From contig JAQGDQ010000622.1 in assembly GCA_030141605.1 (NCBI GenBank), positions 61,410 to 125,409 on the forward strand: a DNA stretch of 64,000 nt, given 5' to 3'. Of this stretch, positions 12,848 through 63,577 are shown piece by piece (the stretch's first letter is position 1; every line of letters starts with the position of its first letter). The notes beneath the pieces are model-generated. The model did not search any database, was not told the origin of the DNA, and was given only the letters and a program-made list of their open reading frames with translations. This DNA is from Tubiluchus corallicola. Its lineage: Eukaryota > Priapulida > Priapulimorpha > Priapulimorphida > Tubiluchidae. Made by a program: the position numbers and the translations under genes.

Positions 12848-12914
12848 ATGACAGTCATCTCAGCTATCTTAAGCGTCACGTGTGCTACTTACTTCTTCGC
12901 CAGCTCGTATGCAG
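12848..12914 (+). CDS. WSC gene exon 1: signal peptide
   Basis: ATG at 12848 opens 22 codons with a hydrophobic core (ISAILSVTCATYFFA) and SSYA at a plausible cleavage site. Donor GCAG|GTAATT, phase 1. Joins exon 2 to form an Ala codon. Confidence 0.7.
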
Positions 12915-15900
12915 GTAATTTCAGCAGCGTAATTTTTGCTTGCATGTTAATTGTAATTGTTTGTTTATATATGTGGTTGTATACAATTGATGGTGTATCC
13001 ATTTACTTAGTTCAGGGCTTGTACTCGTCCTATAATTCCTACATTTTTTGAAAACATCCTAGAATTCTATATTTTGGGTTATGTCCTATAATTCCTATAA
13101 AACTTGATAAAACTATAAAAATGTCCTATAATTCCTATAAAATCATGAATACTCAATGAAGTGAGAATGTTTCTGGTATTTTTCGCGTGCCTTCGGTGTG
13201 CATAACCACAATTAAATATTATAAGTACATATCTTTATGATTTGGGCATTTTAGTGAATGTAAATAACAGTTGTCTGTTGCGAAGTATGTATGTTTTTAC
13301 AGAGTTGGTATTCTCATTGCGTGGTTAGAAAAAATTATTTACTTTTTCAAAGAAATTGTGAAAATCGTGGTCGTGTAAGGTTAGAAACTTTCGTTTTTAA
13401 ACAAAAATGTCCTATAATTCCTATATTTTTTTTCAAAAAATGTCCTATATCTTTATAGAATAATGTCCTATATTTTTGAGTAGAGTACAAGCCCTGTTAG
13501 TTTACTTGTTACATTTTTTGATGAAACATAGGAAGTGCAGGCTCCTTGTTTATAACTGCATCTTGTTTGTCGACAGTTATGTAGTTGGTACTTATTGTTT
13601 TCAAGTGAAATGAGTAGATTAGTAAGAATTAGGCTTATCATGCGCACACTGCTTTTTGCCTATGGATGGGCATTTGTGGTGAATTGGAGGTTGATAAGCA
13701 TTTCTGCACTGATTTTGTTTCTTGCTTTTAGTATTGACTTTGATTTGTAGTAAATGCATTTTAGACAAGCTTACTCCACTTTTTGGCCTACCCTGCTTTT
13801 GTTTAAGCTTTTTCTGTATTTGTCTGGTTTCAGCAAAGCCCTTCGGACATTACTATGGTTGCTACCTGCAGGGTAATCCAATGATTTATGATGAAGTAGA
13901 CCTTCCTGTTATTCTAAATGATGTAAATTCCACGAAAAAATGCCTCTTGGCCTGCTTAAATGAAAACTATCCGTATGCGGGGCTTGCCTTTTCTGATGAT
14001 GACATTTTAACATGTTCGTGTGGGAATAGCTATGGACGATATGGTGAAGAAACTGAAGGGTGTAGTAAATGTCCAGATGACGGAAAACTCAATTGCTCGA
14101 TTGATGGAAACACCAGTGCGGTATATGATACTGGATGTAGGTATTGCTATTTTAGTACAAATAGGTGAATGTTTGTTTATGTGTTTGTTTGTTCCTAATA
14201 ACCCAGCAAGCATTGTCTTTTTTCTTACTAAACTATTGCCTCTATTTGTACTCGCAGGTGGAATGAATAAACTAACCACAAGATGGCTGTTCAATTTTAG
14301 TATGTTTTTAGTACAGCCTACTAAATGTCTATATAGACGATGCAGTTCTACATGGTATCATTTGGTACATTACTATGTGATAGGTACCATTTTTAAATGG
14401 TTTTGAAACTAGGTATTTCAGCTAATTTTTGCACAATTGTCATCTAAACAATTTATTTAGCAAATACACTGACAAAATGTCAGGCTGTATGTATTGCAGC
14501 TAGGTGCAAAGCTCGAGGTCAAATTTATGCCAGTATACTTCTAAGCAAGCATTTTTCACAACTCGATGTTTAAGTAAATTACATAGACCACAGATTCATA
14601 CTTGAAAAAACTAATGTCAGTGAGCAAGCATGGCTACATTGAAACAAGCAGAAAGGCTTCATAACTATCTGTGTTCTCATATGGCGAATTAATTGAAGCC
14701 AATATTGAGAGTTTCAGACCCCCGAACTCATGGAGTTTACGGTCCGGAAGTGACATTTTCCAATTTCATCAAAACGAAATGCATTTCCTAGGTAATCAAG
14801 CTTGGAAAATTCAACAATTGCAAAATTTTGATTTTGAGGCAGAGTTGATGTCAGCACAAATTTTCTATTCAGCACTTGCAGTTTTGGTTATACTGCCAAA
14901 TCTTGAAGTTTATGACTTCATCATAAACAGCAGTCTATTTATATATACAATGCATACAGTTAGTTGGTACCTTGTTATTTCTGTCTTTTGCATTGGCTTT
15001 TGTGATTCTCTACTGTATCTAGAATGTTTACAACACGCTAGAAAAAAAGTAATGTAACAGCTATTCCTTCCCTAGCTATTTACCAAAAACAAATCTGGCT
15101 TCCTTCAATATATCAATGCTGTTGCTGGTAGTTACTTTAGCTAATGACTACCAGTCTACAACTGTCTGCTTTCAGTATGGTATAGGGAGAGACCAGAATT
15201 CCGTGGATGCTGGAAGATAGACGCATCCGGCAGAGATTTCAGGAATAATTTCACCGCTTCCTCGCCGTATGATTGTATCGCCGTGTGCAGGAAGTTTGCC
15301 AAGCAAAATAAGAACAACAAAGCAGACAGGAAAGCATACGTGAAAAGTCCGGAGTGGCTTTCGTACTTTTCGATTTTTGAACAGCCACAGTCCTGCTTCT
15401 GCGATGGCAGTTTGGGCACGTCAAAAGCATTAGAGCCTGCCAAAAACTCCTGTCCGAGGTGTGGTAATGAGGGTTTCTGCTCTGGGACAAATAAAACTTA
15501 TGCTGTATATGATACCGCAGGTAAGAATGGGTAACATGCTGTCTTTAGACCTCCATGTGCTCAGTAAAAGAACTATTATTTTTATCATTTATTTTAATTT
15601 CACAGTTTCGCAGAAGTCCTAGCATATATCCATAATAGCTTCGTATTTCAAAACCATGTATGCTCTCTGCTTTAGTTTTTGGATATTTTATCAAAGAAAA
15701 TCTTACTTAAAAATAATGGCTAGCTATAATTGCTAATCATTTTCTGTGTTGTGTAGCAAATGAGTTTTTTATGTAGCATTTTTGAAAACAAGTAACTGCT
15801 GCTAATTCTGCTTATAAATTTGCACATATTATTGTGTGCTAAAATTTTTAATGATTGGTTATTGGTGTATGCATTATTGCAATAAAAATGCAAAAATCAG

Positions 15901-18900: not shown

Positions 18901-21900
18901 GTCAGTAGAACTTTCTCTTTTTTACCTCCACTTTCTACCTTTAATTGCCTTTAAAGGAATGATGGGAAATCATATTCATGAAATTGCGTCCTGTTACTTT
19001 GATGCGGACATTAATAAGGTGCTTGAAGTCACACTAGATGAGCTTTTGCTGTGTTTCTTGAACAAAGCCATGTTCTTAATTCATATTTATGCACAGTGTG
19101 ACATTCACTCTACTGTTTCAGTTTGAGACTACTGCTAATGAACACCTAGACAAAGCCTATGTAATAGCTTTTAATATGTATAAACTTCATATATTTTGAG
19201 TGGATTTACAATTTTTACTCATCACTGTAATTCCACTATGTGGAGTTATGAAGGATGTGGTACAGTTTAGTTAAAGACAGATATATACAACTACTTTGAG
19301 AATATAATTATGCAAATAGTTGATTAAAAATACAAGTAGTTTATTAAAATATGCAAAACCTGTATAACAGACTTCAGATACGATATCAAAAACAATTATC
19401 AATGTGCTTCAGCCCATAAGACCATATAAAAATATAAGTTGTTCAATAGCTGGTACTTATTTCAAGAATCCATTACAAACTGTTACAGAAATCCTTTGCA
19501 AATACAATGCACTAGTTGTTAGCATGCAAGGCTATGTGTGGCACAAAAGCCTACTCCAAAACTTCAGTCGTGTGGCATAAATAACAGTGCTCTCACTATT
19601 GTTTCACCGTATCTCAAAAATTGCAGTTTGCAAATTTTGTAGAAAGGACAGTTTTCTTCTGTTTGTGAAATAATACTGCATTTCTGAAGGCTCAGAAATA
19701 ACGTCACTTAGATTCTATTGTTCGTCAATGATCTACTACACTCTATATTCTTTAGCTCATTACCTGTGCTGATTATACTCCTCTGCAAGCATGGCATCTC
19801 ACACACTGTCTTGAACTGGTGCCAAAATTAACCTATTTTTAATGCAAAGAAGTTAAACTGTGCATCCTTTTTTCAGCAATGAAATGCTATGCTGCTCTTT
19901 AGAAATGCAGGTATAGTAAGTCCTCGCTTAGTGACTCTAATGCATTCCAGCAAAATGTGACAATATGCCAACATCGCTAAACGAAACTATGGTTTCCATA
20001 AGAAATAATGTAAAAGCATTCAGTTGCATTGCAGGGGCAAAAATCGGCTAAAGTTTGCAATTTCCCACACACAAGAAATTAGTTGGTGAACCACATTAAG
20101 GTTAAGGTTTGGGTTAGGGTTGGGGTTAGTGTGTTTAAATTGAGTGGGAATTCTAAGCTCTTTCCCAAAAGTCAATAGTGCTTGGCTTTGTAAAAGTGTC
20201 CACATATGTTGCAGGAGAAAATCAATAACACTTGGCTTACTAATTAAACACTTATAGCGTTTGTTGCTCACAGTTCTACTTTAAGTAGTTGTTTAATTAA
20301 AAAGCTAATGAGTAAGTAAAGTATGAAAACTAGAATCCAAACTTGAAACAGTCCTTCTTCATCTGGTTGCTCTTTTTAGCCATTTTTACTTCTTTTTCCT
20401 TCTCCTTAAGATTTTTTTGTAAGAAAATCTAGGGTTGGGTGCTTAGATTTTTTCCTTTTTTCAGTCAGCACTTATGACACTGCATTACTTTCAAGCTGTG
20501 TTTGCTCTCATGGTCATTTTCAGTGTTGTCTTTGTGACATTTAAAATGAGGTGAAGGCAACAATTAATTATGTAACACCAGAGAGTTTTGTCAACCAGAG
20601 GAATGTTGTTTAAGCCTGGAAAAGCTATGAATCATCATGATCTGCTTAGCTTTGTCTGATCGCTTGTTATATACTTAGAGTATGAATGTAGTAAACGAGA
20701 TTTAGTGCTTAAAAGTAAAGCTAAAAAGCCATTGTTAAAACCAAACATGCATTTTTAAGTTATTGTTACCAGTGGATACAATTTGTTAAAATCTTTGGTA
20801 AGCGGGAGACAGACATAGAAACTGTTGCAGATAAAAACAGGCAAATCTTCAAAACACTCGGTCAAGTTTTTAAAGTTTACTTGATGCTGCTTGTTACTTT
20901 AAATGCATATATGTAATCTTCATACAGATCTTACATAGATTATATCTAGATATGCAGCTGCAGAGATACACATTACCGATACAGATACAAATCTAGGTAG
21001 AAATTATGTTGAGAATTTTAGAATATATAAAACTTTTATGTGAACTTTTCATAGTTGCATACAAAAGCTTGGTTATTTTGTTTGTTAGCGTTTTACTTTG
21101 CATTTCCAGATTTTGGCCCGCAAGCATTCAAGTTGGGTTGTTGGAACGACATAACGTCGTGGAGTGGCAAAAGACCCCACCTTGCATTCTACAATCGAAA
21201 ACAGTCTCCAAATGGTTGTTCAAATCGTTGTCGAGTGAAAGGCTTCCCATACGCATCTTTGATGAACGACAATTTTTGCAACTGTGGCTACAGTTTTGGT
21301 CACAAGGGGCCGTCAAATTCTCCGTGTAATATAAGATGCCTTAACAACTATAAGGGTCGTGGAATCTGTTTCAGTAATAGGAGATTGAGGAAAGACAGCA
21401 CAGGGTGGTACTATAATGCGAAACCTTGTCCCACATGTGGAGGATGGAATAAAAGAGAAGTCTTACGGGCTATTGGTAACAAACCTTTTCACTGTTTCGT
21501 TGTGTGCACGCGCAGTTGCTGCAGGTCAAAAATTAAGTGTACCACAACAATGTGTTTTAAAGACAACTGTCACATGATGTGTGTAAAGCAAAGCTGTGAC
21601 TACACCAGTTCAGTAACTTCAACTGTTACACATGGACTTTGCTTAATTATGCATTAGTCTGCGCATAGAGTGATTTACTAGCAGGATCTTGCTTAGCAGC
21701 AAGAAAAAATGAACTAGGTAAGGTTCTAGCTAGCAGCTAAAACTGTTAACATTAAAATAGCATAGGCAGCAAAGCATTGTCTAACATACACAAATGCGTT
21801 GCCTAGTACACTTAATCTTTGACCTATTCATGATCATCATCAATTGCTGGAACTGTAAAAAGGCCTATTGCAGTTATTGCACAACTTGAACTGGAAGCTT

Positions 21901-24900
21901 CAACATTATTAAAACTTTATGTTTCGAATTTTATCAATATTAACTTATATTAATGTGAATTTTCTGCTGAATCCAAAATACTTGAGTTAAACTTGAATGG
22001 ACTATACCATTTATCCAAGCTTAGAGTCGTTTGCTATAATTTGTACTTGAAGTACAACTACACGGATAAGTACATTTTACGAAAAACAGGTACAAGTAAA
22101 TAACGACTTTTATACCAAATGTTATATTTATTCCAAATTCAAGATTATACTTTTATTTTTCGTTACACTCAATGCATATAAATTTTTCGAAATTTGTGTT
22201 CGTCAACCTGTAGCGATCAGCTGTAAATATATTTCCTGCAATTCTGAAGGCTCTTACTACGCCTGCAGAGAAAGTCATAATAGATAGATAATATTATGCC
22301 GGCTTTACCAGTGAGTTCCCAAAATTTTAATGGGTACTCTCTGCTACATGGTCGATTTAAGAATTTGCTGATTTCTAGTGAAACATAACGCATCAACAGT
22401 TGGAATTCTGTGTTGGGGTTGCTTTGTGTAAGTGCAATATAGAGTCTGCAAGTCTGGCTTACCCTGGTGCCAAAAAAATGAAAACTCGTTTTTTCAATAT
22501 AGTATTTCAGTGTTTTTTTAAGTAACTCTGTTTTTTTACTTCCTTGTGAAGCATGAGTACTTGTAAAGAACTTGAACAGTACTTGAGATTTCAAATACAA
22601 GTACTTTGTTTTAGAACAAGTACTCAGAAAATAGTACTTGAGTACCAAGTACAAGTACAGTTCGGGACACCAAGCTTGCAGTTATCGTGCAGGAAAAAAT
22701 TCTACATCGAGACCAAGAGCTATTTCAGTAGAAGATTATAGAAATTTATTTGAAAAAAAAACAAAACTACTACTAAAGCATCTTGACAGTTGATTATAAG
22801 TAATTCACAACTATCCAAATTGTAACTGACTGTTGCTACTGTGTCAAAACAAACCATCATTCATCGTCTGAATTAATAAACTTGTTCTGTTATAGCAGAA
22901 TGAGCAGGCGACTTCAGCATTTTCCCCATCATGAGAAATACATCTACTTAGCTTTTCGAACATATCTGCTAACTTTGCATATGTAAACACTTGAAATTTA
23001 TACTTTGCGAAGTAACTCTATAAAGTGGTCTGTTCTAATGCTTGTTCTCTTTGTTGTTCATGTAATAAATCTTTAGCCAATATTTACATTGTAACGTTGC
23101 ATTTTAAATTTTTATGAAAAATGGTTTTCCATAGCATTGGCATTCTAAATGACAAGTAGCAATTGTTTAGAAGAACACAATGCATGAGTAGTCCAATGCT
23201 TCACATTCTGGACTAGTTGCTAAATAAATTTCACCGAAAAGCCATCTAACGATGAGTTCAATGAAGTCTTGAATGGCATTATGTTCCAGTATCACTATTT
23301 ATCCATTCACAATTGCTATTTTTCTCCAAAAAAAAGAATAAAGTCATTTGAGCAATTCTAAGGGGTCATGCCGTCTGTGGTTGTTTGGTCAGTGTTTAGA
23401 TTTATTCTACTTTACCATAGCCAGGGTAACACTGATTCCTGAAACTTTTTATGGAGCTTGTAGGTCCGCTTCTGGTACTCATTTGAAGTCTTGTTCAGAA
23501 AAATACATTTTCATAAAAATGACAGATAGTACGTTTTTATTTCTTTAAAAGTTTGAATACACTTCAAGTTGAGTTTGAAAACAATAAAGAATTTTTTTCC
23601 AAATTACATGTAAATTAGAATGCAGTTTACTAATTTTTGCAATTTTATTGTTTTTGTATTACTTAAAGAGTTAAACCCGGGAGAAAAGTTGGGAACAGGA
23701 TGCTATCCAGCTAACGGTACTTATAATTTGGCTTTTAAGATTAAGACCCAGGCGATGACAGCAGACATGTGCGTTCATTACTGCTATATAAGAGGTAGGT
23801 TGTATTCTCATTTAAGCAAATTGAGTTACTTTAGTTGAATAAAATTCAATTTTTATTATTAAAACTTTCTGTTTTCCATTTAGTAGTGAATGAAATTGCT
23901 TTGTGCAGGACCCACTCAAATGATATAACTTTTAGTAGCCAAAAACTAAAGTTTAGTCAGAATGGCTCAAGAAAATATCAAGTAATTAAATTCTTGATGA
24001 TTGAATACCTCCTTACTCTAACCTGCTTTCATTGTACTGTGACTAATGTAACACAAAAATATAATATAAAAAAATTGGCTGTGTTTAAAATTTTCGCTAA
24101 AAAAATTGGGAGAGTGAGATGGCTCTGTTTATGTCACTTAAATTTGAGTAATTTAAAATTAGTTATGAAGAGTTAAGATATCATTCATGGTGGATGCTGT
24201 TGGCGATATGGGTCTCAAATTCTGAGGATTCGTACTTGGCTCAAACATGCAAGACTCAACAAACTACATTTAACGTGAACGGCTGATGTTACATGGCATG
24301 TTATCAAATGCTCATGAAACACAAATTACTTGTTGATGATCTTCTGAAATAGAAACTAAAGAAATGTTTGCTTTTATATTCTACTATGAAATGTTTATTG
24401 TAAAGTTATAAGCATTCATTGATTTTTTATCAGTCACATAACCTTGGTTATGGTGGTCGTTTTTAACCTGGATTCCACTAGCTATTTATTGACAATGCTG
24501 CATACAGGCAGTTATTAAAGAATCCTTCGTTTAAATTAACTTAAATTTCATCATTTAACAAAGTATTTAGCTTCATACAAGTATTTTTGTGCATTTCTTT
24601 GTTTACCATTATTGTTGCTTTGGTCACCAGCAAAACCCTGTCATATTCGAACATCCATTTGTTACTTCCTAACTGTCTAACCTGTTGTTCATGTTTATGC
24701 AGATGGGTTTGCGCACAGACGTACATTGTGTCAAAACACAGTGTGCAACTAGATTTTTTATGAAATTCTATGTTTTTGCATGTCCTGTAATTGCACTCGT
24801 TTATTATGGTTGTGCTCTTGTGATTTCTTTGTCATTGCCACTCTCCATGTTTCTCGCCCGATATTACTGCACACTGGTTTTTAGCCAAGAACACCACCCA

Positions 24901-27900: not shown

Positions 27901-30900
27901 TGATGATTTAAAAGTTCTGTTGTTTTTGTTTTTAGCGCAGACAGCAGTCTGGGAAGTTAATCACTGTAAGCAGGCAGGTGTATGCAGCACTGTGTACATA
28001 ACTAACAACTCTACTTACGAATGGAGTGAAATTCAAGATTCTAACTGTTCCACTGGTAACTAATTGTAGCTTGTAATTGATTGTAAAGGGTTAACCCAAA
28101 TCTGTGTACAACTGTTTAAACTTTCCCTGGGATGAGATATGGTTTTATTTCATTAACTTAATTCTGATAAGGCCGCTCAAAAATAGTTTGCCGTAAATTG
28201 AAACTGGGTAAAATAATAGTATAATGAATGCCATTAAATATTACTCACTATTGGCCAATGATGCTTGAATGCTTTGTGCGGTGTCTTGCTTATACAAAAA
28301 TAATATAACAGTAACAGGATGAACCCTAGTAGGCATCCTGTAATTTCTCGGTGCTAAATTGCACTCTTCTTGGTGGTAAATTGCACTCTTCTTATTCCAA
28401 TTCCAGATTTTTTCATACTAAATCTCTTGCTGCTTACAAGGAGTACCCTTATTCTCCTTGGAAGATCCCAAATAGTTTCAGAAGTCTCTTTTTCCCTAAC
28501 AACAGTTTGTGAAAGTTTTTGCACAGTTAAAAAACTTGTGGATTACTGTAAAATTACCATAAAGATCCCTGCATTCCGGAAGACAAAATTATGCCTGTGA
28601 CATACATTGCAGAATGCATTATCAAACCATATTTAGTTTGCAACCGCATGTGGTTTCGTACTGTATATTAGCGATTTATAATTTGTGCGAAAATGCCATG
28701 AATAGCAATTTCTTCTGCTTTTTTTGATACACATTTGGAAAAGTCCTTAATGAGACGATGGGAAGTTATTATGAATCATTTGATACTAAAATGTTAGCCA
28801 GATAGTTGAGAGAATGGCAAAAAGCAGCTACGCTGGCTTACCCTTATATCTTGGTTTGCTGGAAAAAGTGGGGAGACGGGCTGACTTTGCCAATTGTTCG
28901 TATTTACCTATACTAATCTAATACAGTAGGTACCGTGTATTAGTCGCACAGCAATGAAGAGAAACCGCTAGTACAGGCTGCTTCTGAGATACAAAGGCTT
29001 CTCGCGTCGTTACACCATGCTTGGTTACACCGATGTAGCGATGTAAACAAAGTGAGGGTCAATCAGCTCGCGAGACAACGGACTGTGTCCAACTGTCCGT
29101 AGTATGCGGGACTTTTAACAATCGAGATTTTATTCAATGTGTGTAAAAGTGAGGTCTGGCAAACCGAGATATGAGTGTATATGCACCTGTGCGACCACGC
29201 CACATATACAAATGTGCCAGCTAGCCTGACATATTAATACATCCGTTAATGTAACTGCAATATCTCGCAATCTTAACCTATAAGTAAGCAAAATTATTGC
29301 TCTAACATACAGTCATGCAATTTTTTAACTGTGTTAACTGTTATTTGACAGGAATAAGTATTATCATATTAATTTGTCTTTCTCTGGTTGTTTTGTTATA
29401 TCTATATTGTACTAAAGCGCTACTTTTTTGTTTCAGGTATGTTAGCTAATTGTGAGTGGACCAGTGGGTTAAATGTTACGTTTCCGGAATTGGCCGATGC
29501 AGCGTATCTGAAATACTTGATGCCGATCAAGAATATTACAGATTTTTCTGTCTGCATGGTAAAATGAAATTTTCCTTTCATGTCTAAACTTTTGAGTAAC
29601 TGTAAGAAACAAGGATAATTCAAATGAGCAGTTTAAAAGAACAGCAACATTTTTTTGTTGGATGTCCCACAATAAGCAACAATTTTTTGGCAGTTTTTTA
29701 AAAGCAATAACGTTTCTATTGTTCAACTAGCAGTCATCATCAGGTGATGGAAAAAAATTGTTTATTACCCGATTGCTTATGATGAATGTGTGCAGGAGAA
29801 ACGTTAATAAAAAAATTGATAAAAAACAGGTTGGTTATTATTAGATATTTAAGAAATTGATGCCATTTTTGCTATACTAAGAGTTTGAAAATTCTGTGTA
29901 CATAACTGATGTACAGGTGTACAGGTGTACTGATTGGCATGAAATTACCATTATCAGCATTTCTGGAACTGCAGGCATACTCTTTATACTTTACTTATAT
30001 TTGTGATTTTTGTTATTTCTACATAAAAAAATTACATGTAAAATTAAATGTAAAATCCATAATATTAAAACATTGGATCTTCTTTTGTTTAAATACAAAA
30101 TCTGCTCTTGGAGTGTCAGCAGAATTTAAATTTAAGTTTATTAGCATTTCTGTAGCATTCTAATGATATAGTTACGTTCGAATTTCATAAGGAAGAGCAT
30201 TCTAGTAAATGGAGTGCAATTTCTAAATCAACAATTTTGCATGATAGTTGAAACAGCTTGGTAAAGCAAGTTTTGTATAGTCTTATGTTTTTATACTCTT
30301 ATTGTACTGCGTTAATTGCCTAGCATTTGTTTTGTGCCCATGATATGAATAGTGACACAATTTTTTCTTTTATGTTTAGAATTGTCTTACTTTGCAGTTT
30401 ATTTATGTCATGCTTAGGTATATAGCTTTAACTGTAGACCAACAGCTGTCCAGCTCTGAACCATAACAACGTCTGGATTGAATTAGTCTACATAACAACA
30501 TTTAGAAGTGATGACTAAACGTGATTAAGGTGATAATTGCCAAAGCATCTGCTACGGATTGCAGTTTTTCTTTACCCAAGAGTTGCTCTTCGTGTACCTT
30601 CTGATATTGTCATGATTGCTTTTACATTGGCCTGGTGCCTTGCCATATATCCAGATCAGCTACCCGTTCACCATATATCTTATTTGTGTTGCACTTTTAC
30701 AATTCCTTGGATACCTTTCTGTCTTATCTTGCATGTCTTCTTTGCCTTGAAATAATATTGCTTTCATCCCATGTTCCACACTTGCTCACATCTGTGCTTA
30801 CTGTCAAATACGTGATTGTTGTAGTTTCTATGAATATGAAGCAGCAATATTTTAACTGTATAAACAAAATATTTGTCTTAAACATGATAGATAAAGCTGC

Positions 30901-33900
30901 TAACTTCTTGAATTTGTACTATATTCTTACCTACATAGTATACTCTTAGCTGTATGGCATAAAAAAAGTTTACGTTCATTATACCATGTTTTCAAGTTGA
31001 TGTTTGCAAACTAAAATATCATGTGACTACTTAGTAATGGTTAGTGAATGTCAGATAAATTTTTTCTGGAAATTTCTATGCAATTTTTGCAGAAGCTAAC
31101 CTGCTGCATGATGCATTAGTATAATTTTGCAAGCTTAAACTTTTAATATTTTGTGTTTGGATAAATAAACTTACCCTAAAAATTATCTGTAATTCTTAGT
31201 CAAATTTAAAAAAATGATGCTAGCCCTTTTTTGGCATCACTCACCAGGTCTATACGTTTATGAATTCATTAAATTCTATTATTTCAGTGGCTGCAGCCAA
31301 AAGTCGGAAGTGGACTTGATGTGAAGAATGTGACACTGCTTTCCTATGCAAGTTCAGACGGAAATAGCGAATTTACTTTGAAAATGCGGAACTGCACATT
31401 TTACTTTCTGAATCTGCTATCGGGGTCGATGTACGTATGAAAATAATGGAAAACAAAGTGAAGTTTAATACACTGTACTCTGCCTTCATATGTGATAAGT
31501 CATCGTTAGTTTATACTGTGTAAAGTTTTCATCATTTCACTTGAGATGGTTAGTGTTATAAATGTATCTTAGAAGAGAATATTCAACAGTTTAGAAGCTA
31601 TTCTATATGAATCAGTGCTTGCCTTATTGCACATAAATACAGAAAGATGTCCATTACAAGAATATAAAGTTCTAATGATACTGTTTTTTAAAGTAAAAGC
31701 ACAGCCTCACCAACAATTTTAGCAAAAGTTTAAGGAATGTGTTGAAATAATATTCCATTTGCTTTTGTAAAATAATTAAATAATTTATGGTTTTACTTAC
31801 ACCAATTACTGTATACACGCAATTCATCGATTGGGCGACCATTCACGGATGACGTCAATACAGGAATTATAATACAGTAGGCGTCGCTTAATATTCTCAA
31901 TCGCTTAATTGACTCAAATACTCCTGGTACAGGCTGCTTCTATTCAAATGTGCATAAAAACTGTCGGTAATTGACTCCGCATAATTGACTCAATATTTTT
32001 CTTTCGCATTCCTGAAATAAGACATTTGTATGTGTCCAAAAAGACTTTGATACTTTTATGTCATGTTTACTTTGCTTTTGTGCACTATAATTTATGTAAA
32101 AACTGAGAAACAATCATGTTAAGTGCCGTTTTGTATGTAAGCAGGTACGTTTATCATGCGCCAATATGCTAGCGTAGCAGTTTTGCCTTGAATCTGGTAC
32201 CCGCTCGTTCTTGCAGTTAACCTCGTAACCTAGGGTATTCGATTTATTTATTTCTTTTCTGCTTAAGTTGTTGGTTTTGATATTTATAAAACATGACTGG
32301 GCATTTACTCTAAACGAAGTACGTGGTTAAAATGATGCAAACTAGATGCTGCTAGAATTAGTTCTTCAGCTTTTTTTACATACACACAATTTATATATTT
32401 TATATGCTGATTTCAAGTATCTTGCATTTTTACCTACCGGGCAGTCTGTGTTGATTTCTTCATTGTTCTATAATCTCCTCCTAAGCTCATTAACAAACTC
32501 CTTCCCGATTGGTATGTTTTGCATGTTAGCCTCAGGGAAAGAAACTGCCTGTTTTAATTCTGTCACTTGTTATAGGTTTGACAGTTTTGAAGAAATTTCA
32601 TTGATTTAATTGCAACAGCCAATTTGTTCCAACAAAGTTAACCCATTTTTTTCTAAATAGGCGGATAGATTTCAACACAGTTTTCATTTCAGGGTGGTAT
32701 GACGTAAGCCTTTGGCATACTGACAACGAATTCTTGCAGTATTAGTTTGAAATTTCTTTAATGCTTTTTATTTCCTGTGCTTGAACTGTAGCTACATTTT
32801 ACAACTGTTCTTGAAATTAAACTAATGGCAAAGAGATAGAGATTGTCATCGCAAATTTGTAGTTATTCAGAACTACGATACATTTAAAAATTTGCAAATA
32901 TTGTGACCCAGTTATTTCATTTTAATAATTTGCAGTCATGTCGCATTTATGGCATTTGTACGCACAAAATAATTCACCTTTTCTGTTTGAGTTGTTTTTG
33001 GTGAATTTTGCAGGTATGTACTGTCACCTGAATGTGCAAACTTAACATTAGCAGATGGAGCCTTTCACTTCTTTTGTTTTGTTAAGAATGAATCAAATGT
33101 TGAGATGTGGATTGATGCTGCTACTTCAAGTAAGTACTTTCTAATATCATATGTTACTGTTGTACGTATTTTTATTATAAGCTTCAACAACGTGGTACGT
33201 ACTCAACAGAACAGAACTCACAACTTTCTTGTTTGTGTATTCTTCACGTTTACTTAAGTAATCCTACCTAATGTTACAGTATGCAAGAATGATCTTGATA
33301 GTGCACACCGATCTGTTGTGTAATAAATATCCCGTGTATCATGGGTGAAAAATATCCCTGTTATTTTGTCTAGGTGTATTTTTTACTTGAGTTGAGAAGC
33401 AGACTTTAGTTTGTGCTAGAACCACAAGAGCAGCTAGCTCAACTAAGATGCTAAATTCTAGCTGTATTGATATTTTACGAAAAGAAATAGAAGCTATCAG
33501 TCTATTGTATGGCTTTATCAGAACTTTTCTTTAAGATAAACTTAGCATCACTGTTAAAACAAAGTCATCTGATAGAGATTCACATTATTTTTTTCCACAA
33601 TTCGTAAATGCAGTTACGTTCAAGTAGTAGCCACACCACATTTCACATTAGAAGTTAAAATTGTACAAATTTACTAAAATTATTTTAAAATTAACTCTCT
33701 GATATATTTGCAAAGGAAAAATTATACAGAGTTTTGCATAAGCGTGGCAGTTTTTTTGGAAACATTTCCATTCTTTCAGTTGCCGTTTGTTAAGTGTCAA
33801 ATATTTTTTAAAGTCAGGATTCAGGGATATCAAAACATATTTATGAACTGTAGCAATTTACTTTTATTATTTGAGTTTTACACCAAGGTACACCAAGTTG

Positions 33901-36900
33901 TTAAGTTTATATTTGACAATTTTTCTTTACCATGTGCAACAATGCAACACCTGTGAGCTTTTTAATGCCCATGCAGCTAAAGAGACTAGCTTGTTATTTG
34001 GGATTGCATAAAAAGGTGGAATTTTTGTCTTAAAATCAATGTCATCTTATCGTGTTTGGGACTGGTAGTTTATATTACCCAATTTTAAGATTTGTGTTTT
34101 TTTTATTAGTGTTTGTGACATTCCTAACTGAATTTTCAAAGCGTCTCTAGTTTTCTTGGTATTTTTTGATAATATTGCACTATTTCTATGTAGCCATCGT
34201 AACTGAGAGGTTCTATATATACCCCTTTCATTTGACAGATTTGTTTCTTTTCACGCTGTTGATAACAAAAACATATAAATTTAAGTAATTTCACGAATTT
34301 CTAAAAAACTGTTTCAGGTTCTACCAAAGTGAATAATGTCACAGTGACATCCGGCGGGTCCTTGTTTTTTGCAAAGAGTGAACAGAACGCAAACGGTGGA
34401 TACGTGGGAACAGTTAGAGATATCCGATTTTTTGCGAGAGCTTTGGACACTAAAAACATTAGTGAGCAAATCTTTTTTCTTGTATTGATAACGCACCCCC
34501 TTTTGGGGTTACACTCTAATGAAACAATAATCCACATTAATATTTCAGACAACGATATTCAAGAATAGTTTTTAGTTAAGTGGTTTGCATAGAAACAGTG
34601 ATATGTCTATTTAGTGAAGACTTATAACTATGAGAACAAGATGTCTTCAATTTGGGTTTTGTTTCATTGCTTATATGTATACATTAATTTGCATGCTGTT
34701 TATTTGCCCTTTGTTTTTTATGTTCTCCCGTGGCTTAATAAGATATTGAAGTCATTCCAGGATCTTGTTGTTTTACGTACCATTCGTTACTATTGTTTAT
34801 TCTGTGCTAAGACTTTCATTACTCAAAGGTACACTACCTAGAGTCGCCATTTTTTCAATGTAGACACCTCGGACAACGGAATATAAGGATACCGAACAGG
34901 GACATTGGTCAGCTTTACAATTATTTCTCAACTCCTATAGAGCTTTGGACTAGTTTCAAAATTTATTTGACAACTATTTTGCTAGTGTATGTGGTAGATG
35001 TGCACTGAGTATTTTTCGGAAAGTGAGCTGGTGAAAATATAAAAATACGTTCATGTCAGTAGCGTAAAAAGTATGTCAGCTAGAGAGACGAGACTTGATT
35101 GGCACCTGGGATATCAGCTTAAGCTACCGCATAGTCACTGTGACCAAAACCAAAAAGTCAAGGTCAATGGGCATTTACAAATTCCTTCTATAGCTTCTAA
35201 TAATTCAAAAATTACAGTATTTATGTGGTTAATAATAGGCTTTTGATAAAAAGGGCTAAAGTCAGCAAACCTTTTTTGTTTGCTGGTGTAAACACTGTAC
35301 AGATTACACCAATTTTTATTGCAGTGTAATATAATGTAACTTAATGTAATATTGCTGTTTCATTTCATAGTACTGTTCATGTTGCAGTGAATTACGTTAA
35401 CTCACAATTCATCACTTGGCTCATTCGTCTTGCAGAATCTTCAGTTTACGACTTTGTCCTAAACTCTTTTCTGGTTCGCATTTTATTTCTTACATTGCGT
35501 CGTAGATTCGCCATAGAGTCATTTTATTCATTTTAACACAATTCAAATTCCTGCTGGGAGAAAATGAGTTACTGCTCATGAAAAAAAACCTAATCTTTAT
35601 AGAAACACTTATTCTTTTTTAATATCAGCTTTTATAATACATAGGTAAACAGTTTTTTTATTAAACAGTTTTGTATGTAACTAAGCAGCAAAAATTGTCA
35701 AAATTTAGTCAAAAAGACAAAAAGTGTCACCTTTTAGCTAAATGTTTTGTTATTGACAGCTGAGCTGTATGACACTGGAAGGAATGCAATATTTCCGAAA
35801 GCCATTCCATTGCCAGAAAAGTTTCTGCACCGAAAGGTTTTGATATGTAATGGTACGTGCCAGTATTGATTTTTTACTCTCTTAAATTTTATATGTAATT
35901 CCGTCATTACAATTAGCCTGCATGAATGAATAATAGTAGTAACTGGCCACTTTAATTATTCAAGTTATGGATGTTATGGATGTCAGAGTTACCCTGCAAA
36001 ATATTTTTTGCATAGTTATAATCATAATTATTAGGTTATTATTCATGATGGTACAAGCACACAAAGAGAAAGCATAAATGCTGATACTGGTTAACCAACT
36101 GTAAGGGATGAACTTTGGGCTGTCATGATCGCTGGGAAACATGATAATTTAGCATTTGCGACATCTGTCTTGCAAGCAGAGGATCCCTGTTGTGTTCCAG
36201 CTTTTCCTGTTTTTCAGAACTTTTCAAAATTCAATTTATTGTGGTTTTGTACCATCATACATTGCACTGTGTTTAATAATTATATACTCAGTTGTTAATT
36301 CTTTGTTTGCTAAACACGCCTTGAGTCGGCGATAGTAGAGAGTTTCCGCTACAATCGCAGAACGCTTCTTCGTAAAATCATTAGTACCGCAGAACTCGCT
36401 TTACAATCACAATTACAATTACAATCGCAAGCTAATTGTAAGCTTAGTAGACAGTCAGCATCGACAGTTTCTGCACAGTTTCCAGCTAGGTAGTATCATC
36501 TTTAGTTTGTAACTGTGTGTTTTATTTTGTCTCGCTGTGTCTAAAAAATATAAATCTTCTAAACTCTTCAAAAGTTAGTCACTATAGTCAGCGCAGTCAG
36601 AGCAGTATAACAAAACACACCAAACGTGATTCTGACTGTGGCTGTAGTGACGCCATTTCAGAATCGCAATTTTTTGCTGTTTGATAGTGGCGGAAACTCT
36701 GTAGTACTAGATAAGTCATTGAGCCTGTAACAGTGATGCTTTTAGCTCATCTATTTTTGTTATAGTTATAATATTTCTGTTTCTTAAGTACTATTTAATT
36801 TTTCATTCCTTCAGCTTTGGTTACTTCTATGTCTTATATTTTTTAGCCGTCGTGAATTTTATTCTGTTTATGCTTTTTTATCAGTAGTGTTCATCTTTGG

Positions 36901-39654
36901 ATGTTCCTGCTCACCGATTACTGTTGTCTGGTTTGATTTCGTACGTCTTGGAAATTTCACTCAGGAAACAGTGAATAACGGCTTGCTTCACTTTTTTTGG
37001 GATGGAGGGAATGTGCTTGTTGTTTCTCTCTTCTGTATTCTCTTTTTAATTTAGTTGACTTTTTTTGCTAATTGCTACCACTTTGCCCCTTTTTTCTGCT
37101 ATTCTGCCTTCTTTTCCTTTTCAATTATTATCCTTTTCTTTATTGATTTCCAGGTTTCTTTTCCTTTTGTCTATTCTCACCTGTTTTCCCCACCTTCTTT
37201 TGTGTTTCTTTTATTTCATTTTCCATTTTCATTTTTATATGCACCTTCTACTTTGACTTCCTTCCCATCCATAGTTTATACTTTGCTTCCCTCTACCTCC
37301 TCATTTACTTTTCTAACGTGCTACACAGAATAATAGAAATTTACCTCTCCATTGTAGGTGTTTTGACTAATTCAGGATTACTTTGTGTCATATTAAACAC
37401 ATGTAGTTCGAATTTCGATTCTTAGTTTGTCTTCATTTTCGTTATCTTATTCTTTGAGTTTTATTCTCATCTCTCGGAACGCTTGATTTTTCTTTACACA
37501 ATGCTTTGTTTCAATATTGGCCTTCTAAAACATCACTGGTTTTCAACTTTTTCGATGCACCACATAATCAAAATGTTAAACAAAGAAAGCTCCATAAATA
37601 TCTATCTCTTTATATTGTTTATAGAAACTGGTGCATGTGAAAGCTTTCCCTGTCAGAATGGCGGCACTTGCAACAACCACGGAAACTACTACAGCTGCAG
37701 CTGTCCTCTAGGATTTTTAGGAAATCAGTGCGAGAAGATGGTGGGAAATTGTAGCTCTGTTCCTTGTAAAAATGGAGGAACCTGCCTAGAAGAGTCGGGC
37801 GTCAAAACTGCTTATCGTTGCCTCTGTCCAGAAGGCATTTTGGGACCCACTTGTGCTGTTAAACCTGAAAGAGCTACAGGAAAAGAACGGAGAAGTTTCA
37901 GCGCACCATTTTCCATGCGAACCACCAACGATTGCAGTGCATGCCAGAAATATGAGAAATGCATTCGAAGTGGTGAAGGTTACGTTTGTGTTTGTCCTGA
38001 GGGGTACACAGGTGATAGGTGCGAAAGCAATCTTGTAAGAGTTGCCCCAGAATTACGAATGCTCAGAACTGACAATTTTACCACTGATAAGTGCCACCCT
38101 AACCCTTGTCAAAACAGTGGCAGTTGTGTTCAGCGTGGATCTCCGTATGGTAGACAATACAACTGCTTCTGCACAGAAGGTTATACTGGTTACAACTGCG
38201 AGTACATTTTTGACATCAATAATAAATGTTCTCCTAATCCATGCCTAAACAATGGAACATGTGTTCCAGACGATGAAAGTTTCAGTTGCTCTTGTACAGA
38301 GAGATACATTGGGTCTTATTGTGAAGTGGAGGCAAGCATTATATCTCCGAAGATACTGCCTCTTCACCGTTCTTGTTTTACTGATCCTTGTCAAAATGCT
38401 GGGACATGCGTACAAGGTGGACAGAATTACAGTTGCTTATGTCTGGAGGGGTACAGTGGACGTAACTGTGAAGACTTTGTGGGCCTTCCATCCTCCACAC
38501 AGACGATTGTCATTGACAAGTGTATTCCAAATCCTTGCCGGAATGCAGGGACCTGCAAACAAAGTGGACAAAATTACACTTGTTTATGTCTGGAGGGGTA
38601 CAGTGGACCTAACTGTAAAAACTTTGTGGGCTTTTCATCCTCCACACAGACGATTGTCATTGACAAGTGTATTCCAAATCCTTGCCGGAATGCAGGAACC
38701 TGCAAACAAAGTGGACAAAATTACACTTGTTTATGTCTGGAGGGGTACAGTGGACCTAACTGTAAAAACTTTGTGGGCTTTTCATCCTCCAAACAGACGA
38801 TTGTTTTTGACAAGTGTATTCCAAATCCTTGTCAGAATGCAGGGACCTGCAAACAAGGTGGACAAAATTACAGTTGTTTATGTCTGGAGGGGTATAGTGG
38901 ACCTAACTGTGAAGACTTTGTGGGCTTTTCATCCTCCAAACAGACGATTGTTTTTGACAAGTGTACTCCAAATCCTTGTCAGAATGCAGGGACATGTGTA
39001 CAAGGTGGACCAAATTACAATTGCTTATGTCTGGAGGGGTACAGTGGGCGTAACTGTGAAAACCTTGTGGGCTTTTCATCCTCCAAACAGACGATTGTTT
39101 TTGACAAGTGTACTCCAAATCCTTGCCAGAATGCAGGGACATGTGTACAAGGTGGACCAAATTACAATTGCTTATGTCTGGAGGGGTACAGTGGGCGTAA
39201 CTGTGAAGACTTTGTGGGCTTTCCATCCGCCACACAGACATTTGTCTTTAACATGTGTATTCCAAATCCTTGTCAGAATGGTGGGACGTGTGTTCTCCAC
39301 AACAATGGGTCATATACTTGTGATTGCAGACTAGAATATGATGGCGCCACCTGTGAAAATAAATACATGCCCTGTGGCATCAACGTGGAAGAAGTCTTTA
39401 GCGATATGAACCGCGAAATTTTGCCCTGCACTACAGATGCTGACTGTCCAGGGAAACAACAGTGCTGCCCCGAATATGGATGCTTGCCATTGGCATATCT
39501 TTACACGTGGGAACGGATCATCGGAAGCTGGCAGAATATCGTTTATGTTGCTCTCGGTTGTGCGACTGCTATTGTCATTATAGCCGTGATTTGTGGTGGT
39601 TTAGTTTGTTTGTTTGGTAAAGTGTCATCCATTGTTTCACCGTCATTTAATTAA
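12848..39654 (+). CDS. WSC-Kunitz-EGF-pentraxin-EGF(12)-WAP-like type I membrane protein
   Basis: A 17-exon model with frame-consistent GT-AG junctions: 12848-12914, 13834-14136, 15176-15520, 17255-17530, 21110-21475, 23421-23528, 23669-23794, 24951-25154, 25540-25716, 26249-26362, 27936-28055, 29437-29558, 31288-31430, 33014-33129, 34318-34461, 35760-35852, 37625-39654. Junctions are phase 1 except the three inside the pentraxin domain, of which the first two are phase 0 and 2. Domain order: signal peptide, five WSC-type modules, Kunitz, EGF, linker, pentraxin/LamG, 12 EGFs, WAP-like half, one TM helix, 12-residue cytoplasmic tail. About 1540 residues. WSC and pentraxin modules suggest carbohydrate binding; Kunitz modules inhibit serine proteases. 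A cell-surface recognition or adhesion role is inferred. I know no named family with this order. Exons 5, 6 and 11 are the least certain. Confidence 0.7.
13014..13496. mobile_element. MITE with CAGGGCTTGTACTC termini, in WSC intron 1
   Basis: CAGGGCTTGTACTC at the left and GAGTACAAGCCCTG at the right are exact inverse copies. TTAGTT flanks both sides (13008-13013, 13497-13502). The 483-bp interior is made of repeated TCCTATAATTCCTATA motifs. CAGGG ends suggest hAT; no coding capacity. Confidence 0.85.
13834..14136 (+). CDS. WSC gene exon 2: WSC domain 1
   Basis: 303 bp, phase 1-1, acceptor TTTCAG|CA, donor GGAT|GTAGGT (weak; chosen for phase). Encodes HYYGCY, then KKCLLACLN, YAGLAFSDDD, TCSCGNSYG, CSKCPDDG and a final AVYDTG: the eight-cysteine WSC layout with the terminal 'SVY' strand. 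WSC domains are putative carbohydrate-binding extracellular modules. Confidence 0.8.
15176..15520 (+). CDS. WSC gene exon 3: divergent WSC domain 2
   Basis: 345 bp, phase 1-1, acceptor TTTCAG|TA, donor CGCAG|GTAAG. Contains FRGCWKID, YDCIAVCRKF, SCFCDGS, CPRCGNEGFCSG and TYAVYDTA. Same cysteine order as WSC but with an Arg/Lys-rich insertion in the middle, so it is a divergent member. Confidence 0.75.
15521..16690. other. WSC intron 3, left part
   Basis: No exon recognised. The 51-bp minisatellite occupies the right part of this intron. Confidence 0.5.
16695..17208. repeat. 51-bp minisatellite, about 10 copies
   Basis: Unit of 51 bp beginning GCAAGTATTGCATGCAGTAA and ending CATCAAGTCACGCAAG. 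Central copies alternate between a TAATTATGTGCAGC and a TAAAGATGTGCAAC type, giving a 102-bp higher-order period; the first copies are degenerate. Because 51 is divisible by three, open frames of 173-232 codons arise, but none is in frame with the next WSC exon, so I treat the array as noncoding. It ends about 46 bp before the exon 4 acceptor. Confidence 0.9.
17255..17530 (+). CDS. WSC gene exon 4: WSC domain 3
   Basis: 276 bp, phase 1-1, acceptor TTGCAG|AA, donor CAGAAA|GTAAG. Encodes VGCFIWDDAY, HINCRIKCLREG, YYAAIQGKDNNCLCGNTY, CRPCEPGGTFLCAG and AIAVYYTE, a good WSC match with all eight cysteines. Confidence 0.85.
17970..18403. mobile_element. hAT MITE with perfect 8-bp target duplication
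   Basis: Ends TAGGGGTGAACAT and ATGCTCACCTCTA are inverse (two mismatches). GTACACAG is duplicated exactly at 17962-17969 and 18404-18411. TAGRGGTG termini with 8-bp duplications are diagnostic of hAT. The interior holds repeated TTCGAATTCGAAAT motifs; no coding capacity. Lies in WSC intron 4. Confidence 0.92.
18412..21109. other. WSC intron 4, right part
   Basis: Mostly unrecognised. At about 19914-20010 a stretch beginning ATAGTAAGTCCTCGCTTAGT resembles the left end of the pogo-like MITE at 25188; no matching right end was found. A GGTTAGGGTTGGGGTTAG patch at 20107-20128 is telomere-like but too short to mean much. Confidence 0.4.
21110..21475 (+). CDS. WSC gene exon 5: extended WSC-like domain 4
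   Basis: 366 bp, phase 1-1, acceptor TTCCAG|AT, donor ATTG|GTAACA. Encodes LGCWNDITSW, NGCSNRCRVKG, YASLMNDNFCNCGYSFG, CNIRC and CPTCGG. The cysteine order follows WSC up to the CNCG motif; the C-terminal half is longer and lysine/arginine-rich. The open frame continues past this donor, so the exact 3' end is uncertain. Confidence 0.65.
22022..22675 (-). mobile_element. hAT-type element keeping part of a transposase C-terminus
   Basis: TGTACTTG-type ends face each other (about 22040 and 22660). On the minus strand a frame reads EISKFLNRPC then YPLKFWELTG (about 22375-22290), and in a shifted frame IAGNIFTADRYRLTN ending in a stop near 22150. 'E-I--(F/Y)L--P---PL-(F/W)W' and 'AG-I-T--R-RL' are the hallmark blocks of the hAT dimerisation domain. 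The frame break shows the gene is dead. In the intron after WSC exon 5. Confidence 0.65.
23421..23528 (+). CDS. WSC gene exon 6: short cysteine-bearing linker
   Basis: 108 bp, phase 1-1, acceptor CCATAG|CC, donor AGATA|GTACG. Encodes 36 residues with two cysteines (FYGACRSASGTH and KSCSEKY). Supported only by splice signals and phase; it may be the diverged start of a WSC module. Confidence 0.45.
23669..23794 (+). CDS. WSC gene exon 7: WSC domain 5, N-terminal half
   Basis: 126 bp, phase 1-1, acceptor TTAAAG|AG, donor AGAG|GTAGG. Encodes LGTGCYPANG and MCVHYCYIRG, the first half of a WSC module completed by exon 8. Confidence 0.75.
24951..25154 (+). CDS. WSC gene exon 8: WSC domain 5, C-terminal half
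   Basis: 204 bp, phase 1-1, acceptor TTACAG|GC, donor CATG|GTAGTT. Encodes HKYAVLTGFTECRCTND, YCDVACAGTYLG and YCGGYYSS with terminal YYSIYR: the C-x-C, C-x3-C-x-G and CGG...S(I/V)Y signature of WSC. Confidence 0.8.
25188..25295. mobile_element. 108-bp pogo/Tigger-like MITE
   Basis: Left CAGTAATTCCTCGCTTAA and right inverse of CAGTAAGACCTCGCTTAA, flanked by TA on both sides (25186-25187, 25296-25297). CAGT...CGCTTAA ends with a TA duplication fit the pogo/Tigger branch of Tc1/mariner. It lies 33 bp after WSC exon 8. Confidence 0.85.
25540..25716 (+). CDS. WSC gene exon 9: Kunitz/BPTI domain
   Basis: 177 bp, phase 1-1, acceptor TTTTAG|AT, donor GCAG|GTAAAG. Shows EICGMYMVKGYCKQK, RFFYD, KCIPFRYSGCKGNANNF and NCIDACA: all six Kunitz cysteines, the F-x-Y strand and the GCxGNxN core. 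The residue after the second cysteine (P1) is Lys, as in trypsin-inhibiting Kunitz domains; inhibition is inferred. Confidence 0.92.
26249..26362 (+). CDS. WSC gene exon 10: EGF domain
   Basis: 114 bp, phase 1-1. Six cysteines in EGF order: DCKSSPCMNGGTC, then CFSCICLPSFTGDVC, with an extra Cys in the C3-C4 loop. Same length and phase as the downstream EGF array. Confidence 0.85.
26840..27676 (+). mobile_element. Probable truncated LINE 3' end
   Basis: A segment with no exon that ends in GAGATAAATAAACAATCTTAATCTTAATG-like sequence, i.e. a poly(A)-type signal followed by short tandem repeats of AATCTT, the way CR1/L2-type LINEs terminate. No reverse transcriptase motif remains, so the call rests on the tail. 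Confidence 0.4.
27936..28055 (+). CDS. WSC gene exon 11: linker
   Basis: 120 bp, phase 1-1, acceptor TTTTTAG|CG, donor CACTG|GTAACT. 40 residues with three cysteines and two N-glycosylation sequons (NNST, NCST). No domain recognised. Confidence 0.55.
28841..29177. mobile_element. TA-flanked MITE family B, copy 1
   Basis: Left CCCTTATATCTTGGTTTG and right inverse of CACTCATATCTCGGTTTG, flanked by TA both sides. The interior matches 47505-47853 (shared TAGTATG-GGGACTTTTAACA and GTGAGGTCTGGCAAACC). 337 bp, noncoding, in WSC intron 11. Tc1/mariner-type by its TA target. Confidence 0.8.
29437..29558 (+). CDS. WSC gene exon 12: pentraxin/LamG-like domain, part 1
   Basis: 122 bp, enters phase 1, leaves phase 0 (TGCATG|GTAAAA). 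Contains NVTFPELADAAYLKYL and FSVCM, which joins WLQPK of exon 13 to make the 'F(S/T)VC-W' strand of pentraxin-type folds. Confidence 0.7.
29559..31287. other. Intron 12 of the WSC gene
   Basis: AT-rich, no exon or defined repeat recognised. Confidence 0.5.
31288..31430 (+). CDS. WSC gene exon 13: pentraxin/LamG-like domain, part 2
   Basis: 143 bp, phase 0 in, phase 2 out (TCGAT|GTACGT). Contains WLQPKVGSG and TLLSYASSDGNSEFTLKM, the 'LLSYA' strand typical of pentraxin-like concanavalin-fold domains. Confidence 0.75.
31875..32230 (-). mobile_element. Pogo/Tigger-like MITE family A, copy 2 (inverted)
   Basis: Starts CAGTAGGCGTCGCTTAATA after TA at 31873-31874 and matches copies 1 and 3 in reverse orientation through the ACAAACAAAACGGTAC core. 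The right end is diverged near 32230. Lies in WSC intron 13. Confidence 0.8.
33014..33129 (+). CDS. WSC gene exon 14: pentraxin/LamG-like domain, part 3
   Basis: 116 bp, phase 2 in, phase 1 out. Contains YVLSPECANLTLADGAFHFFC and VEMWIDAAT, matching the 'WH--C--W---G----+-DG' segment of the fold, although the usual Trp before His is Phe here. Confidence 0.7.
33130..34317. other. Intron 14 of the WSC gene
   Basis: No exon or classified repeat seen. Confidence 0.5.
34318..34461 (+). CDS. WSC gene exon 15: pentraxin/LamG-like domain, part 4
   Basis: 144 bp, phase 1-1. Contains GGSLFFAKSEQNANGGYVGTV then IRFFARALDTKNI, the 'GG-L--G--Q---GG-F-G-+-D+R-+-R-L' end of a LamG/pentraxin domain. The best single match within the domain. 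Confidence 0.8.
35760..35852 (+). CDS. WSC gene exon 16: post-pentraxin linker
   Basis: 93 bp, phase 1-1, acceptor TGACAG|CT, donor AATG|GTACGT. Continues the fold (TELYDTG) then a basic linker ending LICNG. From here splicing can run, in phase, either to 37625 or to 40473. Confidence 0.65.
36338..36701. mobile_element. TA-flanked MITE with AGAGTTTCCGC termini
   Basis: Left GAGAGTTTCCGCTACAATC and right inverse of CAGAGTTTCCGCCACTATC, TA on both sides (36336-36337, 36702-36703). 364 bp, noncoding, in WSC intron 16. A Tc1/mariner-like MITE by target site. Confidence 0.8.
37040..37330. repeat. Pyrimidine-rich tract upstream of the large EGF exon
   Basis: About 290 bp dominated by TTTTCC/TTTCTT runs on the plus strand, ending about 295 bp before the acceptor at 37624. 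The open frames within it are low-complexity Phe/Ser/Leu and not coding. Confidence 0.6.
37625..39654 (+). CDS. WSC gene exon 17: 12 EGFs, WAP-like half, TM helix, stop
   Basis: 2030 bp of uninterrupted frame after the acceptor TTTATAG|AA; phase 1 in, TAA at 39652. Twelve EGF modules follow one another. The third is irregular (CSACQKYEKC). EGFs 6-11 form a tandem array. After EGF 12 comes MPCGIN ... CTTDADCPGKQQCCPEYGC, the C-terminal half of a WAP four-disulphide core (six of eight cysteines). Then WERIIGSWQ, a helix of about 27 hydrophobic residues (39534-39614) and the tail GKVSSIVSPSFN. Frame-opening ATGs before 37625 lie in the intron. An alternative donor TTTG|GTAAAG at 39616 would remove the stop, but would place later EGFs on the cytosolic side. 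Confidence 0.85.
38371..39252 (+). repeat. Six 147-bp tandem EGF units within exon 17
   Basis: Conserved points recur every 147 bp exactly (38371, 38518, 38665, 38812, 38959, 39106, next at 39253). Each unit is one EGF plus the linker FVGFSSS-QTIV-DK. Units 2 and 3 differ by about one base over most of their length; units 5 and 6 are almost as close. Recent tandem duplication or gene conversion is indicated. Confidence 0.95.
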
Positions 39655-40472: not shown

Positions 40473-40583
40473 ATGAGGGTGCATGTCGCTCCAATCCATG
40501 CTTGAATAATGCAACTTGTGTACATGATTCGAATACGTACAACTGCTCCTGTACACCAGGTTTTTCAGGACAGTACTGCCAAG
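40473..40583 (+). CDS. EGF exon E1
   Basis: 111 bp, phase 1-1. Starts [10 protein letters not shown], so it lacks the D-x-D-E calcium motif; C3-C4 loop [10 protein letters not shown] also lacks Asp/Asn at the hydroxylation position. O-fucose and O-glucose consensus present. Confidence 0.85.
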
Positions 40584-63482: not shown

Positions 63483-63577
63483 GATTAAAATATATGTATA
63501 CTATATCACGCTTATTGCAGTTATTTACAGTTTAGTTCATTCGTGTCTTTAATAAACTGTTTAATAGTTTTTCAAGT

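What the first reader, a model, noticed from the sequence alone, without database searches (positions are those of the whole stretch)
12848..39654. Unusual surface-protein architecture: WSC(5)-Kunitz-EGF-pentraxin-EGF(12)-WAP-like-TM
The sequence shows each domain directly and the phases join. WSC and pentraxin modules are linked to carbohydrate recognition, and Kunitz and WAP to protease inhibition. Combining both kinds with a long EGF stalk and a transmembrane anchor suggests a receptor or adhesion molecule that senses surfaces while resisting proteases. I know no named family with this order. Function is inference.
Basis: partly seen in the sequence, partly recalled or inferred. Interest (0 to 1): 0.75.

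Follow-up and report, generated by a model that had tools for sequence, protein, structure and literature searches.

The report
Mosaic cell-surface protein, known modules
This stretch of animal DNA most likely encodes one large membrane-anchored protein built from familiar sticky and disulfide-rich modules joined in an order for which I found no precedent, a good example of exon shuffling rather than a new kind of molecule.

Summary
A 15-exon GT-AG model over 12848-39654 gives one open 1,550-residue protein: signal peptide, 5 WSC, Kunitz, EGF, a degenerate EGF-like module, a LamG domain of pentraxin type, 12 EGF, a WAP-like module, transmembrane helix and a 15-residue tail. All inter-module introns are phase 1. 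Each block recurs in the same genome: the five WSC types, mostly in order, in at least eight loci; EGF, degenerate EGF and the first LamG exon in order on contig C1449, which also carries EGF and WAP-TM exons on that strand. Joining WSC to Kunitz to the LamG block is unique to this locus as far as my searches reach. The gap at that joint is 532 bases with no start-exon candidate, so one gene is likelier than two. Caveats: the LamG domain fails the Pfam Pentaxin model and lacks much of the calcium site; the WAP-like module is below cut-off and lacks two cysteines; the Kunitz P1' residue is atypical, so protease inhibition is doubtful. Exon 15 might be an alternative end or a separate gene, because 24 phase-compatible EGF exons follow. 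No transcripts or other animal proteomes could be searched. A new combination of known modules; moderate interest.

The parts
12848..12914 (+). exon 1, signal peptide MTVISAILSVTCATYFFASSYA, phase 1 donor
   Evidence: best first-exon candidate near the gene start; hydropathy peak at residue 1
13834..14136 (+). exon 2, WSC 1
   Evidence: PF01822 30.4 bits over cut-off 27.8; the locally best-scoring splice sites differ from the model here
15176..15520 (+). exon 3, WSC 2, variant with an insert
   Evidence: no Pfam hit itself; hhalign of its subtype to the WSC profile 97.3%; paralogs 26.8 and 18.7 bits
17255..17530 (+). exon 4, WSC 3
   Evidence: PF01822 24.8 bits, just under cut-off; paralogs in order
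21110..21475 (+). exon 5, WSC 4 (donor weakly defined, at the edge of a dispersed repeat)
   Evidence: PF01822 36.7 bits; repeat from about 21471
23669..23794 (+). exon 6, WSC 5 first half
   Evidence: with exon 7: PF01822 36.3 bits
24951..25154 (+). exon 7, WSC 5 second half
   Evidence: paralogs on C1811, C557/C911, C2025, C1789
25540..25716 (+). exon 8, Kunitz domain, six cysteines, P1 Lys, P1' Gln
   Evidence: PF00014 60.1 bits; alignment with BPTI
26249..26362 (+). exon 9, EGF
   Evidence: PF00008 28.3 bits; 53% identical to the C1449 exon that precedes the next module there
27936..28055 (+). exon 10, degenerate EGF-like module lacking cysteines 1 and 4 (completed by the start of exon 11)
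   Evidence: conserved in two C1449 paralogs, alignment score 181 against shuffle maximum 50
29437..29558 (+). exon 11, LamG/pentraxin-like part 1 (FSVCMW motif with exon 12), ends phase 0
31288..31430 (+). exon 12, LamG part 2 (LLSYAS), phase 0 to 2
33014..33129 (+). exon 13, LamG part 3, ends phase 1
34318..34461 (+). exon 14, LamG part 4
   Evidence: exons 11-14 together: Laminin_G_3 38.4 bits; in-genome pentraxin profile 27 bits over positions 1-177 of 192
37625..39654 (+). exon 15, 12 EGFs, WAP-like, transmembrane helix, 15-residue tail, stop
   Evidence: PF00008 12 stretches, 261 bits; paralogs C2317, C1449
38384..39287 (+). recent tandem duplication of EGF units, period 147 bp, 6.1 copies, 92% matches
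39373..39492 (+). WAP-like module, 6 of 8 cysteines
   Evidence: PF00095 17.6 bits, cut-off 20.8; alignment of eight in-genome tails
39538..39609 (+). transmembrane helix
   Evidence: hydropathy maximum 2.78 at residue 1513

Best explanation
One gene of 15 exons encodes a type I membrane protein of 1,550 residues: SP-WSC5-Kunitz-EGF-degenerate EGF-LamG(pentraxin type)-EGF12-WAP-like-TM-short tail. It arose by phase 1 exon shuffling that joined a five-WSC array and a Kunitz exon to an EGF-LamG-EGF-WAP-TM block; relatives of both blocks exist apart from each other, in several copies, in the same genome. Most likely it works as a tethered recognition or adhesion molecule: the WSC head and the LamG domain contact glycans or proteins, the EGF stalk holds them off the membrane, and the short tail means no signalling of its own. 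Shown: reading frame, splice-site consensus, domain homology, paralogs, predicted topology. Inferred: single transcript, ligand binding, adhesion role.
For: Uninterrupted 1,550 aa with canonical splice sites and phase 1 at every inter-module junction. Best splice sites chosen without phase agree at 20 of 26 sites. Only two hydrophobic peaks, N-terminal and C-terminal. The five WSC types recur at other loci, mostly in order and on one strand. EGF, degenerate EGF and LamG exon 1 recur in order on C1449, and a LamG exon, EGFs and a WAP-TM exon follow on its minus strand. The Kunitz exon sits 385 bp from WSC5 and 532 bp from the EGF exon, with no signal-peptide exon candidate in the 532 bp. Exons are 36-48% GC; 4-kb bins of the region are 33-39%.
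Against: No RNA. The WSC5-Kunitz-EGF joint has no paralog to support it. The donor of exon 5 is weak, and those of exons 2 and 7 were not the best-scoring local sites. Exon 15 has an in-frame ATG and hydrophobic stretch just upstream (37573), and 24 phase-compatible EGF exons follow it. Ligands and function are untested.
Confidence: 0.65

Rival explanations
1. Two adjacent genes read as one: a secreted WSC5-Kunitz protein and a membrane-bound EGF-LamG-EGF-WAP-TM protein, split in the 532-bp interval 25717-26248.
For: Relatives of each half exist without the other elsewhere in the genome, and the Kunitz-WSC pairing occurs only here. Reading through the Kunitz donor gives a stop within a few codons, and there is an AATAAA at 25724.
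Against: 532 bp would have to hold a 3' end, a promoter and a signal-peptide exon ending in phase 1; none was found even with relaxed thresholds. The C half shows no signal peptide of its own at that place.
Confidence: 0.12
2. Exon 15 does not always follow exon 14: it is an alternative last exon, or a separate intronless gene starting at 37573 (MLNKESSINIYLFILFIETGA), and exon 14 is spliced to the downstream EGF array from 40473.
For: 24 EGF exons, nearly all 114 bp and all phase 1, follow at 40473-59285; no signal-peptide exon was found in 39655-40472 even with relaxed thresholds. Intronless EGF-WAP-TM open frames exist on C1816, C1845, C2111, C2299 and C1567.
Against: The closest tails, C2317 and C1449, lie in multi-exon genes, and on C1449 EGF and WAP-TM exons lie downstream of a LamG exon on the same strand. 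Six-cysteine WAP modules group with these, not with the intronless genes. The hydrophobic stretch is also the acceptor's T-rich tract.
Confidence: 0.18
3. The protein is mainly a membrane-tethered protease inhibitor through its Kunitz and WAP modules.
For: Complete Kunitz domain with P1 Lys, at 60 bits.
Against: P1' is Gln, not Ala or Gly. The WAP-like module lacks cysteines 2 and 7 and is under the Pfam cut-off. Two small modules in 1,550 residues.
Confidence: 0.08

Closest known systems
In-genome C1449 and C2317 genes (EGF, LamG, EGF, WAP, TM)
   Same: C1449: same EGF, degenerate EGF and first LamG exon in the same order, with EGFs and a WAP-TM exon on the same strand; C2317: same EGF-WAP-TM tail
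   Different: no WSC or Kunitz found on those contigs
In-genome five-WSC family (C1811, C1765, C2110, C1714, C2025, C970, C2160 and others)
   Same: same WSC subtypes, mostly in the same order
   Different: no Kunitz or LamG close by at the search thresholds; their ends were not read
Kremen 1 and 2
   Same: animal type I membrane protein with a WSC domain working together with other modules (PMC5014086)
   Different: Kringle-WSC-CUB, one WSC, no Kunitz, LamG, EGF or WAP
Fungal Wsc1-type sensors
   Same: N-terminal WSC and one transmembrane helix at the cell surface (PMC9024836, PMC7915640)
   Different: one WSC, fungal, feeds a signalling pathway; no animal modules
GASP/WFIKKN proteins
   Same: WAP and Kunitz in one mosaic protein (abstract of PMC3427181)
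   Different: no WSC, EGF or LamG; [quoted passage not shown]

Membership tests
WSC domain proteins | WSC domain at the curated cut-off | tested here: met
   WSC 1, 4, 5 over 27.8 bits; four stretches in the joined protein, 69.5 bits
Kunitz/BPTI | six cysteines and profile match | tested here: met
   60.1 bits, alignment with BPTI
Kunitz/BPTI protease inhibitors | P1' Ala or Gly next to the P1 residue | tested here: not met
   P1 Lys, P1' Gln; the expectation rests on general knowledge
Pentraxin | PF00354 match | tested here: not met
   no hit; Laminin_G_3 38.4 bits instead
Pentraxin | pentraxin disulfide and full-length alignment to pentraxins | tested here: met
   both cysteines kept; in-genome pentraxin profile aligned over 1-177 of 192
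Pentraxin | calcium-binding residues | tested here: not met
   by alignment with CRP the DN pair and the Gln-150 segment are not kept; EQD became EQN
WAP four-disulfide core | eight cysteines and PF00095 cut-off | tested here: not met
   six cysteines, 2 and 7 missing; 17.6 of 20.8 bits
EGF-like proteins | six-cysteine EGF units | tested here: met
   12 in exon 15 and one in exon 9
Type I membrane protein | signal peptide and one C-terminal transmembrane helix | tested here: met
   by hydropathy; localisation not tested
Class 1-1 exon-shuffled mosaic proteins | modules bounded by phase 1 introns | tested here: met
   rule described in PMC8001218
Same architecture in other animals | orthologue with the same module order | not testable with these tools
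   no animal proteome collection was available

The most novel reading that the evidence does not exclude
A lineage-specific recognition gene system in which five-WSC heads and EGF-LamG-EGF-WAP-TM bodies are recombined, this gene being a fusion of both, possibly with alternative membrane-bound and longer EGF forms.
Probability: 0.2. Interest if true: 0.6.

Novelty: new variant of a known kind. Interest (0 to 1): 0.36.

Why it matters
It is a clear case of a mosaic surface protein whose building blocks can still be traced, as separate multi-copy families, in the same genome. If the transcript is confirmed, it gives a datable domain fusion and a candidate adhesion or recognition molecule. It does not add a new fold or mechanism.

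Tried and rejected
Structure prediction without an alignment was too poor to use: WSC 4 pLDDT 34, WAP-like 64. The fold search of the latter gave only non-significant hits, two waprins among them. ShK domains are common, 81 matches, but do not settle the phylum, so I name no organism. The first local WSC and pentraxin profiles each contained one wrongly oriented seed; they were rebuilt for scanning other loci, but the quoted pentraxin alignment is. The PF00354 and Laminin_G_3 results do not depend on it.

Full report
Observation. The region codes on the + strand for all the modules listed. Single-exon scans found WSC, Kunitz and twelve EGFs at once. Joining exons by canonical splice sites gave a continuous frame, and a scan for phase 1 exons added the EGF exon between Kunitz and LamG. 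The final model has 15 exons and 1,550 residues with one stop, at 39654. All junctions between modules are phase 1; of the three introns inside the LamG domain one is phase 0, one phase 2 and one phase 1. To check that I had not forced this, I scored splice sites without regard to phase: the best site was the one in the model at 10 of 13 acceptors and 10 of 13 donors.

Domains. WSC 1, 4 and 5 pass the Pfam cut-off and WSC 3 is just below it. WSC 2 has no hit, but with two in-genome relatives it forms a subtype that matches the WSC profile at 97%. The Kunitz domain is complete. The LamG domain passes Laminin_G_3 and fails Pentaxin; its nearest in-genome relative is a pentraxin on C876, it keeps the two pentraxin cysteines, and it lacks most calcium-site residues in an alignment with CRP. 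The WAP-like module lacks cysteines 2 and 7, which pair in the standard WAP fold (general knowledge); the tails on C2317 and C1449 lack them too, while the intronless paralogs keep both. I read this as loss of one disulfide.

The unnamed module. Exons 10 and 11 begin with a pattern WExxHCKxxGxC...CxTG...C, conserved in two C1449 paralogs (37-38% identity, alignment score 181 against a shuffle maximum of 50). Its spacing fits an EGF that has lost cysteines 1 and 4. This is my interpretation; Pfam gives no hit for it.

Origin of the parts. The genome (343.5 Mb, 2,344 contigs) holds at least 85 WSC, 109 Kunitz, 110 pentraxin and 150 scored WAP matches. A query with the whole WSC5-Kunitz half found position-specific relatives of each WSC, mostly in the same order on one strand, on C1811, C1765, C2110, C1714, C2025, C970, C2160 and C557/C911. 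The degenerate EGF module has relatives on C1449, and LamG exon 1 has its best relatives there, where an EGF exon 53% identical to exon 9 lies just upstream and where EGFs and a WAP-TM exon lie on the same strand. No contig other than this one has Kunitz and WSC matches near each other. Neighbouring mosaics exist: WSC alternating with EGF on C2250, EGF with Kunitz on C1850 and C746. So the modules are shuffled widely in this genome and this gene is one such product.

One gene or more. The Kunitz exon lies 385 bp after WSC5 and 532 bp before the EGF exon. Those 532 bp hold no phase 1 signal-peptide exon candidate. Only the N-terminus and the C-terminal helix are hydrophobic. I put one transcription unit across that joint at about 85%. 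The link from exon 14 to exon 15 is less sure: 24 phase 1 EGF exons follow the stop, with no start exon found for them, so exon 15 may be an alternative end.

Function. Fungal and Kremen WSC domains sense the cell surface or bind protein partners (PMC9024836, PMC5014086). The model protein has 24 potential N-glycosylation sites, and twelve of its EGFs fit the O-fucose consensus. The 15-residue tail has no tyrosine. A tethered adhesion or recognition role is the best reading, by inference only. Protease inhibition is doubtful for the reasons above.

Novelty. No held paper contains all of WSC domain, Kunitz, pentraxin and EGF. A combination of trypsin with WSC was reported as found only in Nematostella (PMC6767649), and WSC is among the domains found with SRCR in the sea urchin (PMC10855680), so single-species WSC combinations are known. 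Chimeric sequences are a known hazard in such comparisons (PMC3927609), which is why transcripts matter. I rate it a new combination of known modules.

Noticed in passing
40473-59285 (+): 24 EGF exons, nearly all 114 bp and all phase 1, most of DxxEC type, running towards the contig end; no signal-peptide exon found before them.
   Followed up: partly
60453-63500 (-): Non-LTR retrotransposon remnant: reverse transcriptase (120.8 bits) and endonuclease (46.7 bits) in two frames.
   Followed up: partly
L044 and L045 (G000:C2051:41410-61409, minus strand): Divergent neighbour upstream of the window with two WSC exons (54.0 and 27.0 bits); other exons resemble complement-control and C-type lectin modules by eye only.
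   Followed up: partly
16697-17206 and 38384-39287: Two tandem arrays: a 51-bp repeat in an intron (10 copies) and a 147-bp repeat inside the EGF exon (6.1 copies, 92%), so EGF number may vary between individuals.
   Followed up: partly
13013-13499 and about 21471-21885: Dispersed repeats with dozens of copies at 74-85% identity elsewhere; the second starts at the edge of WSC exon 5.
   Followed up: no
G000:C2138:165491-174784 (-): Dozens of WAP matches in one open frame of 6,684 codons; similar giant WAP frames on C859, C2307, C1755.
   Followed up: no
G000:C1518:188-55762: Dense array of more than 40 Kunitz matches on both strands.
   Followed up: no
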